Under the pieces are notes generated by a model. That model saw only the letters and a list, made by a program, of their open reading frames with translations. It made no database searches and was not told the DNA's origin. Below, piece by piece: positions 14,895 to 21,008 of a DNA stretch of 64,000 nt. The position numbers and the translations under genes were made by a program. The stretch is from Plantactinospora endophytica (GTDB lineage: Bacteria > Actinomycetota > Actinomycetes > Mycobacteriales > Micromonosporaceae), in the NCBI RefSeq assembly GCF_016862915.1, contig NZ_BONW01000008.1, positions 124,001 to 188,000 of the forward strand, given 5' to 3'. How positions within the stretch are numbered: the first letter of the stretch is position 1; every line of letters begins with the position of its first letter.

Positions 14895-15792
14895 GGATGT
14901 CCAGGTGCGTCAACTCCGCGCGTTCGTCGCGGTGGTCGACGCCGGCACCTTCACCGACGCGGCGGCCGTGCTGGGGGTCTCCCAGGCGGCCGTCTCGCGC
15001 TCGGTCACCGCGCTGGAAGCCGCGCTCGGCGCCCGCCTGCTGCAACGGACGACCCGCAGCGTCTCGCTCACCGTCACCGGCACCCGGGTCCTCGCCGCCG
15101 CGCGCCGGGTCCTCGACGAGGTCGCCCACCTGGGGCGAATCGTCGAGGAGGCCCGTACCGAACTGCGCGTCGGCTACGCCTGGGCGGCGCTCGGCAGACA
15201 CACTCGGCGGCTACAGAAGACGTGGCTGGCCGCCCATCCCGGGGTGCCGCTCGTGTTCGTGCAGTCCAACACCCCGACCGGAGGGCTCAGCGAGGGGACC
15301 GCCGATGTCGCCGTGATCCGCCGGCCACTGGCCGATCCCCGCTTCGACACCGCCCTGATCGGCGTGGAGGCCCGGTACGCCGCCGTGGCGACCGACAACC
15401 CGCTGGCGCGGCGACGGTCGGTGCGGATCGCCGACATCGCCAGGTACACCGTCGCGATCGACAGCCGTACCGGCACGACCACGCCCGAGCTGTGGCAGCC
15501 GGGTACGGCGCCGCCGATCCGTACGACGCACGGGGTCGACGAGTGGCTCACCCTGATCGCCGCCGGTCAGGCCGTCGGGGTCACCTCGGAGGCCACCGCC
15601 AACCAGAATCCCCGGCCCGGGGTCGCCTACCGGGCCGTGCGCGACGCGCAGCCGATACCGGTCTGGCTCGCCTGGTGGAAGGACGATCCGCCGGCCCAAC
15701 TCACCGAACTCGTCAACCTGACCTGCGAGGTCTACCGCGCCGGCCGACCCGGACCGGGCGACCCCACAACCGGTGACCCGGTGACCCGCTGA
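14893..15792 (+). CDS. LysR-family transcriptional regulator
   Basis: A 299-residue LysR protein: winged HTH at residues 3-62 (VRQLRAFVAVVDAGTFTDAAAVLGVSQAAVSRSVTALE...) followed by a periplasmic-binding-like effector domain. It is transcribed away from the DMT exporter, and the intergenic T-N11-A palindrome supports joint control. No Shine-Dalgarno site precedes the ATG, suggesting leaderless or weak initiation; the operator overlaps the start codon. Confidence 0.9.
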   Translation: MDVQVRQLRAFVAVVDAGTFTDAAAVLGVSQAAVSRSVTALEAALGARLLQRTTRSVSLTVTGTRVLAAARRVLDEVAHLGRIVEEARTELRVGYAWAALGRHTRRLQKTWLAAHPGVPLVFVQSNTPTGGLSEGTADVAVIRRPLADPRFDTALIGVEARYAAVATDNPLARRRSVRIADIARYTVAIDSRTGTTTPELWQPGTAPPIRTTHGVDEWLTLIAAGQAVGVTSEATANQNPRPGVAYRAVRDAQPIPVWLAWWKDDPPAQLTELVNLTCEVYRAGRPGPGDPTTGDPVTR

Positions 15793-15820
15793 TTCGTCCA
15801 TCTCGGACGGTGGTGGCGGG

Positions 15821-16168
15821 TCAGGTGGTCGGCGACTCCGGAGGATTGTCCTCCTCCCACTCCAGGTGGACCACGAGGTTCGCCTCGGCGGTCGCCTTGG
15901 TCAGTACCGCGACCAGCGGGCCGGTCTCGGCGGAGAGCTTGATGCCGAACTGGACGCCGTATCGGCGGGGCGGGTCCGGCAGGTTGTCCCGGACGGCACC
16001 GGCCACGAACCGGCTGATCCGGGAGATCTCCCCGCCGAGCTCGGTCAGCCTGCCGAAACGGTCCGCCCCCACGTCGCCGTCGGAGTTGACCACCACCTCG
16101 GCGAAGATCGGTCCTCCGTCCAGCTGGCCGATGGGTACGATCGTCACGCGATCGATGTCCTTGGGCAT
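15821..16168 (-). CDS. Trypco1-domain protein (CU044_2847 family)
   Basis: A 115-residue protein. The segment FGRLTELGGEISRISRFVAGAVRDNL then VQFGIKLSAETGPLVAVLTKATAEANLVVHLEW is the pattern I recognise for trypsin-co-occurring domain 1, a small beta-rich domain that in genome surveys accompanies trypsin-like proteases in predicted conflict systems. No catalytic residues are evident. It is divergent, with a 75-base spacer, from the giant trypsin-NACHT gene, which is exactly the reported association. It may be a sensor, a protease substrate or a regulator. Confidence 0.8.
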   Translation of the reverse strand: MPKDIDRVTIVPIGQLDGGPIFAEVVVNSDGDVGADRFGRLTELGGEISRISRFVAGAVRDNLPDPPRRYGVQFGIKLSAETGPLVAVLTKATAEANLVVHLEWEEDNPPESPTT

Positions 16169-16243
16169 GGTTCGCCTCCGGGGCCTGGCCGCCGACCATA
16201 GAGTCTCCGCACTGTCGCCAGCCAGATTGTGAGGGAGCGCGCG

Positions 16244-19200
16244 ATGGCTGCACTGGCCTCGTCACCGGCGGAGCTGGCGCGCTGGGCGGTGGTCTCGATC
16301 TGGTCGGCGGACGACTTTCTGGGCAGTGGATTCTTTCTCGAAGACCGGATCGTTGTCACCTGTGCCCACGTGGTGTCGGGGATTCAGGGAGAGCTGACCT
16401 TACGGTGGCGTGAGCATCACCTGCCGGCCGGCGTCGCGGTGCTCGACCCGCCGGAGCGGGGGAGGGGCCGGTTCTACGCACATCCGGATCTCGCCTTTCT
16501 CGTACTGCCCCGGGCTCCGGACCACCCGGTCGTCCGACTGGGCGACTCGATCTCGACGCCGAACCACCTGATGGCGTACGGCTTCAGCCGGGCGACCCCG
16601 CACGAGCAGGTCGTCGAGGACACCCTCAAACTGGAACTCGCCGGGCGGTCCGGTCAGTTCCTCCGGGTGAAGAACGACGAGATCGTCGACGGCCTCAGCG
16701 GTGCTCTGGCACTCGACGAGGTCACCGGGCAGGTCTACGGCGTGGTGAAGGCGTCCCGTGACAAGCGGGACAGCCGAGGCGGCTGGATCGTCCAGGCCAC
16801 CGATCTGGCGGTGTCCCGCCGACGGCACGCCGCACGCCTCGGCCGACCGGCCCGGCCGAGCATTCCGACCTTCCGACCCGCACCGGGGAGCGGATTGTTC
16901 GCCCTGCTCAGCGCCCAGGTGGCGGCGAGCGAGTCGCCGCCGTACCGGATCGTCACCGGACCGGTGCCCCGACTCTCCGACGTCTACGTCCGGCAGTGGA
17001 CACAGCCCCGGTCGCAGCACAGTGGATCGACCTCGGACGCCGAGTGGACCGGGCACGGCGCCGAGCGGATCGAGGACGTCGTACGCCGGCACCGGCACCT
17101 GCTCCTCGTGGGCGGTCCCGGCACGGGTAAGTCGGCGCTGCTCCAGCACCTGGTGCACCGGACGAGCGCCTGGTGGTTGGCGGACGACCGGGACGCGGAG
17201 GCGCCGTTCGGTGCCGTGTTGACGATCCGGCTGCCGGCGGCGGCGCTGGGCACCACCCGCCCCTGGCTACGCACCATCGCCGAGGCGGCACGCCAGGACC
17301 TCGGACCCTACCTCGACCGGGACCTTCCGGACGACGTGTTCGACCCGGAGTCCGTACCCGGGGTGCAGTGGCTGCTGCTCGTCGACGGTCTGGACGAGGT
17401 CGTCGACAGCGAGAAGCGGCAGCGGCTCATCGCGCTGCTGTCGCGCCGGGTCGCCGAGTACGGCGACCGTTGGCGTTTTCTGATCACGACCCGTCCACTG
17501 CTGCGCAGCGACTTCGACGGGCTGCGCCACGACGTCGACCGGATCGGGGATCGGGACCGGCTCGGCGAGTACCAACTGAAGCCGTTCGACGCGGACGACG
17601 TACGGCTGTTCGCCCAACGATGGTTCGGAATCCGTACGCCGGAGGACGCCGCCGCCAACTCCGCCGCCTTCCTCGCGGAGGTGCACCGTCGGCGGCTGCG
17701 TGGACTGGTCCGGGTGCCGCTGTTGGCGACGGTCGCGGCGGCGGTCTTCGAACGTCAGCCGGACGTGGAGCTTCCCGCCGGCCGCGCCGCGCTCTACGGA
17801 CGCTTCGTACACAATCTGGTGTTCGCCAGGGAGCGCCGCGCGACGGTGCGGGACGCCCTGCTCGACGAGGCGACCCTGATCGGCGCGTCGGCACGCGAAC
17901 CCATCGCCCGCTTCTTCGAGGAGACCGAACGCTGCCTGGAGGACGTTGCCGCCGATGTCGTCGACGGCGACCACGACGAGGTGTTGCGGTACGCGCTGGT
18001 CCGGCTGGCCGTGCGTGCGGCGGCCGACCAGCCGGCCGGGGTGACCGAGGCCGTTCGCACGGCGATGCTCAGTACGGGCCTGATCATGCCGTCCGGGACC
18101 GGACTGGCGTTCACCCATCGGGGCTTCGCCGAATACCTGGCGGCCGGCCAGATCGTCCGGCGCGGCCTGCGTCGTCGTTGGTGGCTCAGTCGGGTCGGTC
18201 GAACCGGTGCGGACAACCGCACCAGTTTCTCGCTCGCCCGCTGGGCGGAGCAGGGGCACGAGGTGTCGGAGCTGTTGACGCCACTGCTCGCGCTGCGCTG
18301 GCGGATCCATCCGATGGATCCACTCCGACCTCGGCTGGTCAGCCCGCGACTGCTCGCCTTCTGCGCGGTGCTGAACGACGGGCTGCGCCTGACGCCGGAC
18401 GGCACCAGGCGGGTGACCGAGCGGCTGCACCGAACGGTGCGCAACATGCACGTCTGGCACGAGGGCGCCGGTGCGGCGCTGCGGTACGTCCTCGCCACGC
18501 TGCTGTCCGTGTCGGGAGACCCCGGGCGGATCTCCGCGCTGGCTCGGGATCGTCGAGCCAACCCGTTGGTGCGGATCGCCGCCGCCGAGGTTCTCGCGAG
18601 CATCGGGAGTGACACCGCCACGCGGGAGGCTGTCAGCTCGCTGACCGACCTCGGCCTCGACCGGGCCACCAGCATCGAGTTCCGGCAGTGGGCCGGTTAC
18701 GCGCTGGGCAGCATCGACGACGACGCGGCGCTCCGGGCGGGGATCCGGACGCTCTCGCTGTCCATCCGCACCACCTCGATGGCGCACGAGATGTACCGGG
18801 CCGCTCATCTGCTCGACCTGCTCGCCGCCCCGGAGGAGTCCGACTTCGCGCTCCTGGAGCGGGCCCTCAGCCCGGTCGGGCCGCTGCCGGTACGTCGGGT
18901 GGCGCTCGATGTCCTGACCGAACGGACCGACGGGGGCAGCGCCGGGCTGCTACCGAGCAGTCGGAGCAGCAACTACCTCTTCGAGCCTCTGTTCGATCCG
19001 GCCTGGCCCGCTGACGAGATCGTCTGGTCGATCCTCGGTGCTCCCGGAAACCCTGTGCCTGAGCGGCTTCTCGCTGGCGCGATCATGCTGTGGTGGCGGA
19101 ACCCGGCGCGGGCCGAGGAACTGCTCGATCCCAACCTCATCGATCCCGAGGCAGGATGGGCCAGGCGGCTCTCCTACGCCCGCCTGCTGGCGCGATCCGG

Positions 19201-20752
19201 TGTCGACGCCCTGGCGGCGCACCTGCTGCGCAACCTGGCCGACGACCCGACGGTGGTTCCGGTCAACCGGGTGGCCACGCTCAACATCCTGCACCGGCAC
19301 GCCGTGCCCTGGGCCACCGAGATGGCCTGCACCTGGGCGCGGAGCGGCCCGCTCGAACTGCGACTGGCCGCGCTGGCGTTGCTGCCCAGGGTCGGCGAGG
19401 CCGATGCCGGCCTGGCGATCGCCCGAGCCTGGCTGCGCGAGGACGGGATCGAGGATTCGACCCGCATCCGGGTCGCCCGGACGTTGGCCCGCGAGTTCAA
19501 TCGCCGCCGTGAGGCCCATGCCGTACTCCGCAGGGAGGCCCGCAACCGGGACCGTACCCTCCGGCACCGGTTCCTCGCGGGCGCCAGTGCGCTCGCGCTC
19601 GACCTCGACGGCCGCAGGATCCGGATTCCGCCGTCGCCGCCGGTGCTCGACCCACCGGCGCCCCGCCCAGCGCACGATCCCACGCCTGCCGAGTCGACCG
19701 GGCAGTCGGCGCCGGTCGACGTTCAGGAGTTGGTACGGCGCTGTGCCCGACGGGTCCGGCTCTATCTTCCACCGCCGAAGAGCCGGCCTCGTGACCTCGG
19801 CTCCACGGAGTTGGCCGGGGAGTTGGCCGACCTGATCGGGGCTGACGCGGCGAGCCGCGTCCAGGCGGCACTCGCCGGCACCCCCGATCCGGACCAGGCC
19901 GTACGACGGCTGCTCCAGAAGCGCACCCCGGCTGCCTGCCACTGGTGGCGCCGGCTGGTGACCGAGGCGCAGGAGGGTACCCCGCCGGAACGTCTTGCCG
20001 CAGTCGCGCTGGCCCAGGCGCTGCTGCCCGAGGCAGTCGCACAGGGTCGCCGGATCCGGCGTAGCCTGTGGTCGCGGCGGCTGCGCCGAGCAGTGCAGCC
20101 GATCGTCCTGACCTGGGGAACCGCGCTGGACGCGGCCTCGTTGCTGATCCGCGCGTACCTCGTCGTCGCGGTCGGCTGGCTCGTCGGAGCGCGCTTCGCC
20201 GGACAGGACGCGTCGGACCAGGTGGCTCGACTGGTCGACGTGCAGACATCGCTCGCCGCGCCGGTCCTGGCCGTGGTCGCCTGGCTCGCCATCCTGCCGG
20301 TGGACCGGGGCAGAAGCCTGCTTCGGGGACGTACCCTCGGCTGGCAGGCGGGGCTGCTGACCACCGGGCTCGTCTGGGGCAAACCACACCTCGATCTTCC
20401 GCTGGCGATCGACGATCTTCCGGTACTGGTCGACGTGCCGACGTCGTTCCTGCGCGAAGGGAACCTGGCGCTCGCGGCACTCGTCGAGTTCTCGGCTCCA
20501 CCGCCGGTTCCCGCGATCGGCCTGGCCGGGCTTGTCCTCGGTGTGTGGCTGGCCCGACGCAGGCTCGGCGACAGGTGGTGGTACGCACCGGGGCGCGGGG
20601 CACGCCGGCTGCTCTTCGTCGGGAAGTTGGGACTGCTGGTCACGGCTGCGGTGTGGCTTTCCGGCGTGCCGGCGGCAACGCTCGCCGAGCGGGTACGCGA
20701 CGCGGCCGGCACCGCCGCCGAACTGCTCCAGACCTTCGCCGTACTGCTGTGA
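16244..20752 (+). CDS. Trypsin-like protease / NACHT-type STAND NTPase / membrane protein
   Basis: A 1,502-residue multidomain protein. Residues 10-190 form a trypsin-like serine protease with an intact triad: His42 in VTCAHVV, Asp82 in HPDLAFLVL, Ser152 in DGLSGAL. Residues 270-480 form a NACHT NTPase with Walker A GGPGTGKS (290-297), Walker B LLLVDGLDEV (DGLDE at 381-385) and a sensor Arg in LITTRP. About 640-1,180 is helical with HEAT-like repeats, the usual ligand-sensing part of STAND proteins. Four membrane helices lie near 1,293-1,318, 1,336-1,352, 1,405-1,433 and 1,456-1,476. The ATG at 16244 has AGGGAG upstream; an in-frame GTG at 16229 has none. Paired with the divergent Trypco1 gene. 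A defence or programmed-death role is inference from the family. Confidence 0.88.
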   Translation: MAALASSPAELARWAVVSIWSADDFLGSGFFLEDRIVVTCAHVVSGIQGELTLRWREHHLPAGVAVLDPPERGRGRFYAHPDLAFLVLPRAPDHPVVRLGDSISTPNHLMAYGFSRATPHEQVVEDTLKLELAGRSGQFLRVKNDEIVDGLSGALALDEVTGQVYGVVKASRDKRDSRGGWIVQATDLAVSRRRHAARLGRPARPSIPTFRPAPGSGLFALLSAQVAASESPPYRIVTGPVPRLSDVYVRQWTQPRSQHSGSTSDAEWTGHGAERIEDVVRRHRHLLLVGGPGTGKSALLQHLVHRTSAWWLADDRDAEAPFGAVLTIRLPAAALGTTRPWLRTIAEAARQDLGPYLDRDLPDDVFDPESVPGVQWLLLVDGLDEVVDSEKRQRLIALLSRRVAEYGDRWRFLITTRPLLRSDFDGLRHDVDRIGDRDRLGEYQLKPFDADDVRLFAQRWFGIRTPEDAAANSAAFLAEVHRRRLRGLVRVPLLATVAAAVFERQPDVELPAGRAALYGRFVHNLVFARERRATVRDALLDEATLIGASAREPIARFFEETERCLEDVAADVVDGDHDEVLRYALVRLAVRAAADQPAGVTEAVRTAMLSTGLIMPSGTGLAFTHRGFAEYLAAGQIVRRGLRRRWWLSRVGRTGADNRTSFSLARWAEQGHEVSELLTPLLALRWRIHPMDPLRPRLVSPRLLAFCAVLNDGLRLTPDGTRRVTERLHRTVRNMHVWHEGAGAALRYVLATLLSVSGDPGRISALARDRRANPLVRIAAAEVLASIGSDTATREAVSSLTDLGLDRATSIEFRQWAGYALGSIDDDAALRAGIRTLSLSIRTTSMAHEMYRAAHLLDLLAAPEESDFALLERALSPVGPLPVRRVALDVLTERTDGGSAGLLPSSRSSNYLFEPLFDPAWPADEIVWSILGAPGNPVPERLLAGAIMLWWRNPARAEELLDPNLIDPEAGWARRLSYARLLARSGVDALAAHLLRNLADDPTVVPVNRVATLNILHRHAVPWATEMACTWARSGPLELRLAALALLPRVGEADAGLAIARAWLREDGIEDSTRIRVARTLAREFNRRREAHAVLRREARNRDRTLRHRFLAGASALALDLDGRRIRIPPSPPVLDPPAPRPAHDPTPAESTGQSAPVDVQELVRRCARRVRLYLPPPKSRPRDLGSTELAGELADLIGADAASRVQAALAGTPDPDQAVRRLLQKRTPAACHWWRRLVTEAQEGTPPERLAAVALAQALLPEAVAQGRRIRRSLWSRRLRRAVQPIVLTWGTALDAASLLIRAYLVVAVGWLVGARFAGQDASDQVARLVDVQTSLAAPVLAVVAWLAILPVDRGRSLLRGRTLGWQAGLLTTGLVWGKPHLDLPLAIDDLPVLVDVPTSFLREGNLALAALVEFSAPPPVPAIGLAGLVLGVWLARRRLGDRWWYAPGRGARRLLFVGKLGLLVTAAVWLSGVPAATLAERVRDAAGTAAELLQTFAVLL

Positions 20753-20783
20753 CCGGTGACCGGTGACCGGTGACCGGTGACCG
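20750..20783. repeat. Heptanucleotide repeat TGACCGG, about five copies
   Basis: Four full TGACCGG copies and a partial fifth start at the stop codon of the trypsin-NACHT gene and end at the stop of the DUF397 gene on the other strand. It fills the entire spacer between the two convergent genes. Confidence 0.95.
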
Positions 20784-21008
20784 TCAGGCGGGCGGGGTGA
20801 AGTCGAATTCGCCGTCTTTGGCGCCGGCCAGGAAGGCGTCCCACTCCTCGCGGGTGTAGACGATTACCGCTGCGTCCGGGGCCTTGCTGTGCCGTACGGC
20901 GATCCGGCCGGAGCCGTCCAGTACCGGACCGGCCTCGACGCAGCTTCCGCCGTTGCTGTTGCTTCTCGTGCTGATGTGCCAGGCAACCGCTGGCAGGGAA
21001 TCGCTCAT
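20784..21008 (-). CDS. DUF397-domain protein (copy A)
   Basis: A 74-residue DUF397 protein: W-H-I-S-T...GGSCVEAG, then IAVRHSKAP and the C-terminal FTREEWDAF-like YTREEWDAFLAGAKDGEF. These small proteins are encoded beside XRE/DUF5753 regulators in actinomycetes (the Scr1/BldB-like pairing) and act with them in developmental or stress regulation. It differs from copy B at two residues (R/K and N/A), showing recent tandem duplication. The ATG at 21008 has GAGCTG-type spacing only; the duplicated end of the regulator gene lies just upstream. Confidence 0.88.
   Translation of the reverse strand: MSDSLPAVAWHISTRSNSNGGSCVEAGPVLDGSGRIAVRHSKAPDAAVIVYTREEWDAFLAGAKDGEFDFTPPA

What the first reader, a model, noticed from the sequence alone, without database searches (positions are those of the whole stretch)
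15821..20752. Trypco1 protein plus trypsin-NACHT-membrane giant protein: a predicted conflict system
Seen: intact His-Asp-Ser triad, intact Walker A/B NACHT core, helical repeats and four C-terminal membrane helices in one 1,502-residue chain, with a small Trypco1-type protein divergently encoded 75 bp away. Known: trypsin plus NACHT/STAND with trypsin-co-occurring domains are predicted NTP-dependent conflict systems, and bacterial NACHT proteins include anti-phage effectors. Inference: ligand binding by the helical region drives oligomerisation, activates the protease, and acts at the membrane, perhaps cutting the Trypco1 protein. The membrane-anchored version looks little studied.
Basis: partly seen in the sequence, partly recalled or inferred. 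Interest (0 to 1): 0.82.

Follow-up and report, generated by a model that had tools for sequence, protein, structure and literature searches.

The report
Membrane-anchored trypsin-NACHT protein with Trypco1 partner
A soil actinomycete carries a variable two-gene cassette that encodes a small partner protein and a giant membrane-anchored protease controlled by an immune-type NTPase, probably a self-defence device; relatives carry its membrane part as separate genes, which suggests it works at the cell membrane.

Summary
The window holds a Trypco1 protein (15821-16168, -) and, divergent 75 bp away, a 1,502-aa trypsin-NACHT-helical-membrane protein (16244-20752, +); Pfam confirms all three domains over cut-off. 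The membrane part reads better as five helices than four.

Related loci take it further. In 354 family genomes I found 23 loci of this trypsin-NACHT clade. Catalytic Asp, Ser and Walker Lys are invariant in 23, His present in 22. All 23 have a membrane component: fused to the NACHT protein in 6 (one clade, all with Trypco1), a gene beside Trypco1 in 2, or a gene near a newly recognised SPFH (stomatin-like) gene in 15. Trypco1 is in 13. Close SPFH relatives were found only at those 15 loci. A more distant SPFH + membrane pair follows TIR genes in three other loci. Three same-genus relatives lack the two genes at this site.

Best reading: an accessory, membrane-tethered, NTP-gated protease of the STAND conflict/defence class, with Trypco1 as partner. 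Trypco1 as the substrate is unsupported; 10 of 23 loci lack it. Defence itself is untested.

The parts
15821..16168 (-). Trypco1 protein, 115 aa; predicted beta-beta-alpha-beta-beta
   Evidence: PF19493 E 1.2e-13; NF041216; AF2 model, mean pLDDT 70.8
16169..16243 (.). 75-bp divergent intergenic region between the two start codons
   Evidence: the consensus scan found no sigma-70-like site inside it
16244..20752 (+). 1,502-aa trypsin-NACHT-helical-membrane protein
16322..16744 (+). trypsin-like protease domain (residues 27-167; H42, D82, S152)
   Evidence: Pfam Trypsin_2; residues conserved in 22-23 of 23; coordinates
17096..17626 (+). NACHT NTPase domain (residues 285-461; K296, D381, D384, E385)
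   Evidence: Pfam NACHT; residues invariant in 23 of 23
18161..19627 (+). helical region, perhaps HEAT-like (residues about 640-1128)
   Evidence: HEAT_2 below cut-off; aligned in homologues as far as residue 1016
19628..19723 (+). proline-rich linker (residues 1129-1160) between helical and membrane parts
   Evidence: sequence; conservation not tested
19724..20140 (+). segment before the membrane helices, homologous in the fused clade
20141..20674 (+). membrane module, five predicted helices (residues 1300-1477)
   Evidence: hydropathy of a six-member alignment and charge alternation
15759..20775 (.). variable cassette holding only the two genes
   Evidence: Homology to same-genus genome G003 stops at 15758; homology to G004 starts at 20776 and to G001 at 20784

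Best explanation
The two genes are an accessory conflict (most likely anti-phage) cassette built around a membrane-tethered, NTP-gated serine protease. The trypsin, NACHT and helical parts lie in the cytoplasm; the C-terminal helices hold the protein at the membrane, where the trigger is probably met. On activation the NACHT domains would oligomerise, as in other STAND proteins, and bring the trypsin domains together or unlock them, so that they cut a target and stop growth or kill the cell. Trypco1 is a co-inherited partner that I think regulates the protease (holding it off, or presenting or docking a target) and is not the sole substrate. Shown here: domains, conserved catalytic residues, pairing, a variable slot, a constant membrane component in the clade. 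Inferred: topology, oligomerisation, trigger, target, role of Trypco1, and defence as the purpose.
For: Domains over Pfam cut-offs. Protease and Walker residues kept in 22-23 of 23 loci. Sparse distribution: 23 loci in 22 of 354 family genomes and 1 of 7 genomes of the genus (only 6 candidates per genome were scored). G003 lacks the two genes between the same neighbours; G001 and G004 have other genes in the slot. A Trypco1 stretch in 23 of 28 loci found without Trypco1. Membrane component in 23 of 23 loci; the fused form is one clade (1 change on the tree, support 92/92, 94% of 200 bootstrap trees). Distances of the NACHT protein follow those of Trypco1 (r 0.81, 10 loci), SPFH (r 0.93, 13 loci) and the separate membrane protein (r 0.91, 13 loci), none of 5,000 permutations as high; near-duplicate loci L121, L125 and L126 were left out of the three tests, and L048 of the last. 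The SPFH + 3-helix gene pair, in a more distant form, also follows TIR genes in L157, L158 and L159, an effector type used in bacterial immunity (recalled). Precedent: N-terminal trypsin domains fused to defence enzymes of Hachiman and AVAST activate a neighbour-encoded nuclease by cleavage (PMC12799240, abstract and passages).
Against: No experiment shows defence for this clade. The cassette is not in a recognisable defence island: the ten flanking genes scanned are ordinary, regulatory or DUF397/DUF5753 genes. PADLOC matches only the protease domain (RT-Protease_XI) and a Walker region (mad8). No match to Trypco1 in 50,697 phage records; in 72,556 plasmid records the large protein has three partial matches and none over 80%, and Trypco1 has one match. 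The distance correlations may reflect vertical descent alone. The fused clade's branch misses the tree tool's 95/80 mark, and window and L139 are long branches whose place it calls unsure. G003 also lost most of the neighbouring DUF397 region, so gain in the window and loss in G003 cannot be told apart from that genome. SPFH proteins also partner housekeeping membrane proteases, so a quality-control role is not excluded.
Confidence: 0.55

Rival explanations
1. Gasdermin-like release: the protease cuts its own proline-rich linker (1129-1160), or the separate membrane protein in relatives, and the freed membrane segment damages the membrane as the effector.
For: A proline-rich linker sits between helical and membrane parts. 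Membrane proteins without detectable similarity to each other fill the role in different sub-clades (hhalign), as an effector slot might.
Against: No known membrane-active family: Pfam finds nothing over cut-off in the six membrane parts scanned. The linker is not shown to be conserved or cut.
Confidence: 0.15
2. Membrane-protein quality control: an accessory analogue of FtsH-HflK/C or of a stomatin-protease pair, in which the SPFH ring and membrane helices hold an NTP-driven protease near its membrane substrates.
For: SPFH genes in 15 of 23 loci, fold supported by a profile match and by Foldseek. The protease domain also resembles the membrane-associated protease MarP (PDB 3k6z E 3.5e-4; NCBIfam E 2.6e-4, under cut-off).
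Against: Sparse distribution and variable slot, STAND-type rather than unfoldase-type NTPase, and no SPFH gene at the six fused-type loci or in the own genome at E 1e-5 (G360 has one distant match elsewhere, E 3.2e-15).
Confidence: 0.15
3. Trypco1 is the substrate: a proform that the activated protease cuts and that then acts as the effector.
For: Constant neighbour in the fused clade (6 of 6). Cleavage of a neighbour-encoded partner is known for other trypsin-fused defence enzymes (PMC12799240).
Against: 10 of 23 loci have no Trypco1 near an intact protease. No enzyme-like invariant residues: of 22 aligned Trypco1 only G75 is invariant and G18, F74, V100 and W104 nearly so.
Confidence: 0.12

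Closest known systems
Trypco1-trypsin pairs of VMAP-vWA-MoxR ternary conflict systems (Kaur et al. 2020, PMC7159879; passages read)
   Same: Trypsin-like peptidase with a neighbouring Trypco1 gene, coupled to NTP-dependent machinery
   Different: Here the protease is fused to a NACHT domain and a membrane module; no VMAP-C, vWA or MoxR is found in the protein or the ten flanking genes scanned. A true VMAP case is in L055 (VMAP-C)
STAND NTPase with an N-terminal trypsin domain in the NucA-trypsin system (same paper, passage)
   Same: Trypsin and STAND NTPase in one chain in a predicted conflict system
   Different: That protein also carries a Death-like domain and sits with NucA-type nuclease operons; neither is seen here
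Trypsin-nSTAND1 proteins with Trypco1 (L058 and the Streptomyces locus L081)
   Same: Trypsin-like region and STAND-type NTPase with Trypco1 next door; both carry a hydrophobic segment after the NTPase
   Different: nSTAND1 (and WD40 repeats in L081) in place of NACHT and helical repeats; no five-helix C-terminal module
Bacterial NACHT (bNACHT) anti-phage proteins, EruA included
   Same: Central NACHT, effector at the N-terminus, putative sensor at the C-terminus (tripartite plan as in PMC12169576, passages)
   Different: EruA model scores 23.7 against a cut-off of 1000; the effector here is a protease and the C-terminus is in the membrane
Trypsin-nuclease modules of Hachiman, AVAST, Lamassu and DRT (PMC12799240; abstract and passages)
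   Different: The partner there is an MBL-fold nuclease encoded upstream; the cassette here has two genes and Trypco1 shows no such domain
SPFH-protease partnerships (FtsH-HflK/C; archaeal stomatin PH1511 with protease PH1510, the pairing recalled)
   Same: Relatives of the window protein have an NTPase-linked protease with an SPFH protein and membrane helices
   Different: Trypsin-type protease, STAND NTPase, and no SPFH gene at the fused-type loci

Membership tests
Trypco1 (PF19493) | match over the curated cut-off | tested here: met
   51.9 bits against 24.6
Trypco1 (PF19493) | encoded next to a trypsin-like peptidase | tested here: met
   75 bp, divergent; same locus in 23 of 28
Trypsin-like peptidase (Trypsin_2) | domain over cut-off and intact His-Asp-Ser | tested here: met
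   32.8 against 27.6; triad in 22 of 23, Asp and Ser in 23
STAND NTPase, NACHT clade | NACHT domain over cut-off with Walker A and B | tested here: met
   31.4 against 26.7; K296, D381, D384, E385 invariant in 23 of 23
STAND NTPase, NACHT clade | NTP-dependent oligomerisation | not testable with these tools
   needs biochemistry
VMAP-vWA-MoxR ternary system | VMAP-C domain with vWA and MoxR genes | tested here: not met
   no VMAP-C in the protein, none of the three in ten flanking genes; cassette holds two genes
bNACHT anti-phage protein | phage protection dependent on the NTPase and the effector | not testable with these tools
   needs an experiment
EruA (NF058535) | score over the curated cut-off | tested here: not met
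   23.7 against 1000
Trypsin-nuclease (MBL) module | MBL-fold nuclease gene immediately upstream | tested here: not met
   the divergent neighbour is Trypco1 and the next gene is LysR-type
SPFH superfamily (gene in relatives, not in the window) | SPFH fold and sequence similarity | tested here: met
   Profile of 15 against PDB: stomatin PH1511 first, E 0.0063. Foldseek of an AF2 model (pLDDT 72, six sequences): 377 matches at E up to 10, 30 at 0.001 or better; the 50 shown are SPFH proteins or major vault protein, best E 5.2e-6; TM-score 0.63 by target for the stomatin domain 4fvg, 0.3-0.4 by query. Against: Pfam has no convincing match in 15 members (best E 0.13), and NCBIfam's best is an unrelated family in one member (E 0.0023)

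The most novel reading that the evidence does not exclude
An interchangeable membrane-sensing platform exists in these actinomycetes. An SPFH-like ring protein plus a small three-helix membrane protein with two conserved cysteines senses damage or entry at the membrane and is plugged into different immune executioners: a trypsin-NACHT protease in one system, a TIR enzyme in another. In the window's clade the platform has been replaced by membrane helices fused to the NACHT protease, making a one-chain membrane inflammasome-like protease with Trypco1 as its regulator.
Probability: 0.25. Interest if true: 0.85.

Novelty: new variant of a known kind. Interest (0 to 1): 0.62.

Why it matters
Trypco1 was named in 2020 (PMC7159879), and I found no tested function (two held papers use the name; the 2024 one calls it an adapter). 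A self-contained two-gene cassette with intact protease and NTPase, and natural relatives that lack Trypco1 or have a different membrane component, gives a direct way to test what Trypco1 does and whether a STAND protease can be triggered at the membrane. The SPFH link would tie membrane-organising ring proteins, mostly studied in housekeeping, to bacterial immunity. For that link my searches were: SPFH with conflict system and STAND (1 paper, Kaur et al.), SPFH with phage and TIR domain (the same paper), SPFH with antiphage (1 paper on oak-disease phages, seen as a listing), and a looser search of 481 papers of which 15 listings were seen. Kaur et al. mention Band-seven domains in vWA components, not this arrangement.

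Tried and rejected
Peptide-pattern search with the single window protein found no relatives; a three-sequence alignment was needed. My first Trypco1 profile was contaminated with wrong-frame translations (it called an antisense ORF in L073); it was discarded and rebuilt from four aligned sequences, then iterated twice on the fetched loci. The first membrane-gene alignment mixed families, and its matches to L048 and L049 are training artefacts; with those two removed, hhalign shows no similarity between the fused module, the three-helix family, and the L048, L130 or L049 membrane proteins (few sequences, so low power). So the claim that the fused module descends from the separate gene is not made. 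L048 and L130 membrane proteins resemble each other only weakly (E 0.007).

Trypco1 fold: Foldseek best E 0.8, second-look aligner best Z 4.7 at 5.5 A over 96 residues; no fold assigned, and the model is modest (pLDDT 70.8). A search with the window's membrane segment alone found nothing outside the own locus in 10 genomes, not even in the fused relatives, so the segment evolves too fast for that test and a stand-alone relative is not excluded; the wider search with an alignment failed. Considered and rejected: VMAP ternary system, MBL-nuclease module, EruA (see membership test). Border repeats as a transposition mark: GGTGACC units stand at both cassette ends but the heptamer occurs 28 times on that strand of the window; left open. 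Of the 61 listed matches the 38 weaker ones (mostly confined to the trypsin region) were not examined, apart from two (L047, L050). Of six loci fetched for distant SPFH matches, L161 and L162 showed neither the three-helix gene nor a TIR gene.
Full report
What is there. At 15821-16168 (-) lies a 115-aa protein and at 16244-20752 (+) a 1,502-aa protein, 75 bp apart and divergent. Pfam assigns Trypco1 to the small one and Trypsin_2 and NACHT to the large one, all over their cut-offs; NCBIfam calls the small one CU044_2847 family. The helical middle is weakly HEAT-like. The C-terminus has five predicted helices with charge alternation that puts the protease and NTPase in the cytoplasm.

A variable cassette. 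In the same-genus genome G003 the flanking DNA is homologous (85-87% identity next to the site) up to window position 15758 and again from 21799, with 73 bp between. By eye those 73 bp hold the 3' end of the DUF397 gene, so in G003 the LysR-type gene is followed directly by a DUF397 remnant: Trypco1 and the large gene are absent, and most of the DUF397 / DUF5753 region has been lost as well. In G004 and G001 homology resumes at 20776 and 20784, at the DUF397 gene, with other genes on its far side in place of the two genes (neighbours named). The segment 15759-20775 that has no counterpart at this site in the three relatives therefore holds exactly the two genes. Gain and loss cannot be told apart from these data alone. 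The trypsin-NACHT clade is in 1 of 7 genomes of the genus.

The clade. A profile of the trypsin-to-NACHT region searched over 354 family genomes gave 55 genomes with a match at E up to 1e-20 and 61 listed matches. The best 23, in 22 genomes, reach E 6.3e-65 or better and run into NACHT; the next match is at 1.6e-39 (6 candidates per genome were scored, so some may be missed). I examined all 23 (window, L048, L049, L120-L139). The catalytic Asp and Ser and the Walker residues are invariant in 23 of 23, and the His is present in 22; in L139 the frame is split near there.

A constant membrane component. In 6 loci (window, L120-L123, L139) hydrophobic helices are fused behind the helical region. 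A profile of the window and L121 C-termini finds L120, L122 and L123 (E 3.6e-130, 3.5e-119, 2e-25); L139 was not hit and is counted by architecture and by its place in the tree. In 2 loci (L048, L130) a 233- or 243-aa membrane protein gene lies beside Trypco1, divergent from the protease gene. In 15 loci a small membrane protein gene lies in the same neighbourhood as an SPFH-like gene; 14 of these encode one family with three predicted helices and, by eye in all 14, two cysteines behind the last one (10 of the 14 were found by a profile not trained on them), while L049 has a different protein. Thus 23 of 23. The fused form is one clade on the tree (1 change, support 92/92, 94% of 200 bootstrap trees, shuffled mean 5.6; the tool does not star this branch and flags window and L139 as long). 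I found no sequence similarity between the fused module and the separate proteins, so this is the same place and presumably role, not shown to be the same gene.

The SPFH gene. Fifteen members align (nine of them were found by a profile of the other six). Pfam and NCBIfam give no useful match. A profile against PDB sequences puts stomatin PH1511 first at E 0.0063, and Foldseek of a predicted model (pLDDT 72, pTM 0.56) returns SPFH structures and major vault protein in all 50 rows shown, from E 5.2e-6. Over 354 genomes the 15 best matches (E 8.6e-52 or better) are exactly these 15 loci; the next is at 4.3e-36, and 47 genomes have some match at E up to 1e-5 (7 candidates per genome scored). The own genome has none. 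I fetched six of the more distant matches. In four (L157, L158, L159, L160) the SPFH gene and the three-helix gene (E 4e-23 to 1e-30) stand behind a 696-794-aa protein that shows no similarity to the trypsin-NACHT profile (tested for two of the four). Three of these four loci begin with a TIR gene (Pfam TIR_2 for L157 and L158, homology for L159); the other two of the six (L161, L162) have neither. No Trypco1 or trypsin-NACHT gene was found in the six.

Trypco1. A Trypco1 stretch is in 23 of 28 loci fetched by a protease query (two of the 23 partial), and in 13 of the 23 loci of the clade: 6 fused, 2 beside the membrane gene, 5 with SPFH; the 10 others have SPFH without Trypco1. For scale, 222 of 354 family genomes have any Trypco1, one to six per genome of about 4-14 Mb in the listed ones, so a chance neighbour within 20 kb would be rare. 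Because all three main branches of the tree contain a locus with protease, Trypco1, SPFH and membrane gene (L132; L049; L124-L126), the simplest history is an ancestor with all four, followed by loss of Trypco1 in some lines and loss of SPFH in the window's line (inference; several deep branches are weakly supported). Its predicted fold (beta-beta-alpha-beta-beta) has no convincing PDB match.

How it most likely works. The anatomy is that of a STAND switch (effector, NTPase, repeat region) with the sensor end in the membrane. The constant membrane component, in whichever gene, suggests that location at the membrane is essential. The intact triad, in contrast to the trypsins at the vWA effector position, of which nearly all are reported inactive (Kaur et al. 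2020, passage), suggests that proteolysis matters. Trypco1 is absent from 10 loci while the protease stays intact, so it is unlikely to be the only substrate; a regulator or adaptor fits better. Precedent for N-terminal trypsin domains of defence enzymes that cut a cognate protein comes from Hachiman and AVAST (PMC12799240). Every step after activation is inference.

Comparison with what is known. Trypco1-trypsin pairs are known from VMAP ternary systems; a STAND NTPase with an N-terminal trypsin domain is mentioned in the NucA-trypsin system; trypsin and NACHT domains appear among the parts of further predicted conflict systems (PMC8195603, passages). The searches turned up no description, in the listings and passages I saw, of Trypco1 with a membrane-fused trypsin-NACHT protein, nor of an SPFH plus small membrane protein module with trypsin-NACHT or TIR; the library misses most subscription papers. 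I therefore rate it a new variant of a known kind.

Noticed in passing
L157:2723-7158, L158, L159, L160 (other genomes of the family; L157 is the same genus as the window): SPFH-like plus three-helix membrane genes behind a 696-794-aa protein without Pfam match and a TIR gene (L157-L159) or, in L160, a 292-aa protein without Pfam match that looks cyclase-like by eye. By eye, the C-terminus of the first protein and the N-terminus of the large one share a motif of the form ITGDGHTFSGP..GGDS, reminiscent of amyloid signalling motifs (recalled).
   Followed up: partly
window:15772-15786 and 20755-20782: GGTGACC units stand at both cassette borders (two on the left, four in tandem on the right); the heptamer occurs 28 times on this strand of the window.
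   Followed up: partly
L057:6586-10005 (own genome, contig C33): A second, diverged trypsin-NACHT protein (959-codon frame; NACHT score under cut-off) with Trypco1 directly upstream, without the membrane module.
   Followed up: partly
L059:9309-9734 (own genome, 20 kb beyond the window): A third Trypco1 gene with no trypsin-like gene detected nearby by similarity to the window protein; possibly an orphan.
   Followed up: no
window:20784-21598: Two near-identical tandem DUF397 genes followed by a DUF5753 reading frame, bordering the cassette; matching DNA is also in G001 and G004.
   Followed up: partly
L139:7539-12259: A fused-type trypsin-NACHT gene whose reading frame is split inside the protease domain, next to an intact Trypco1; decay or sequencing error.
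   Followed up: no
L148 (plasmid of Allocoleopsis franciscana): Trypco1 (CU044_2847) gene directly before a serine protease gene on a conjugative cyanobacterial plasmid.
   Followed up: no
window:44582-49335: A small acyl-carrier-like protein (81 aa) and a 732-aa adenylation-like protein, perhaps a small biosynthetic cluster (judged by eye).
   Followed up: no
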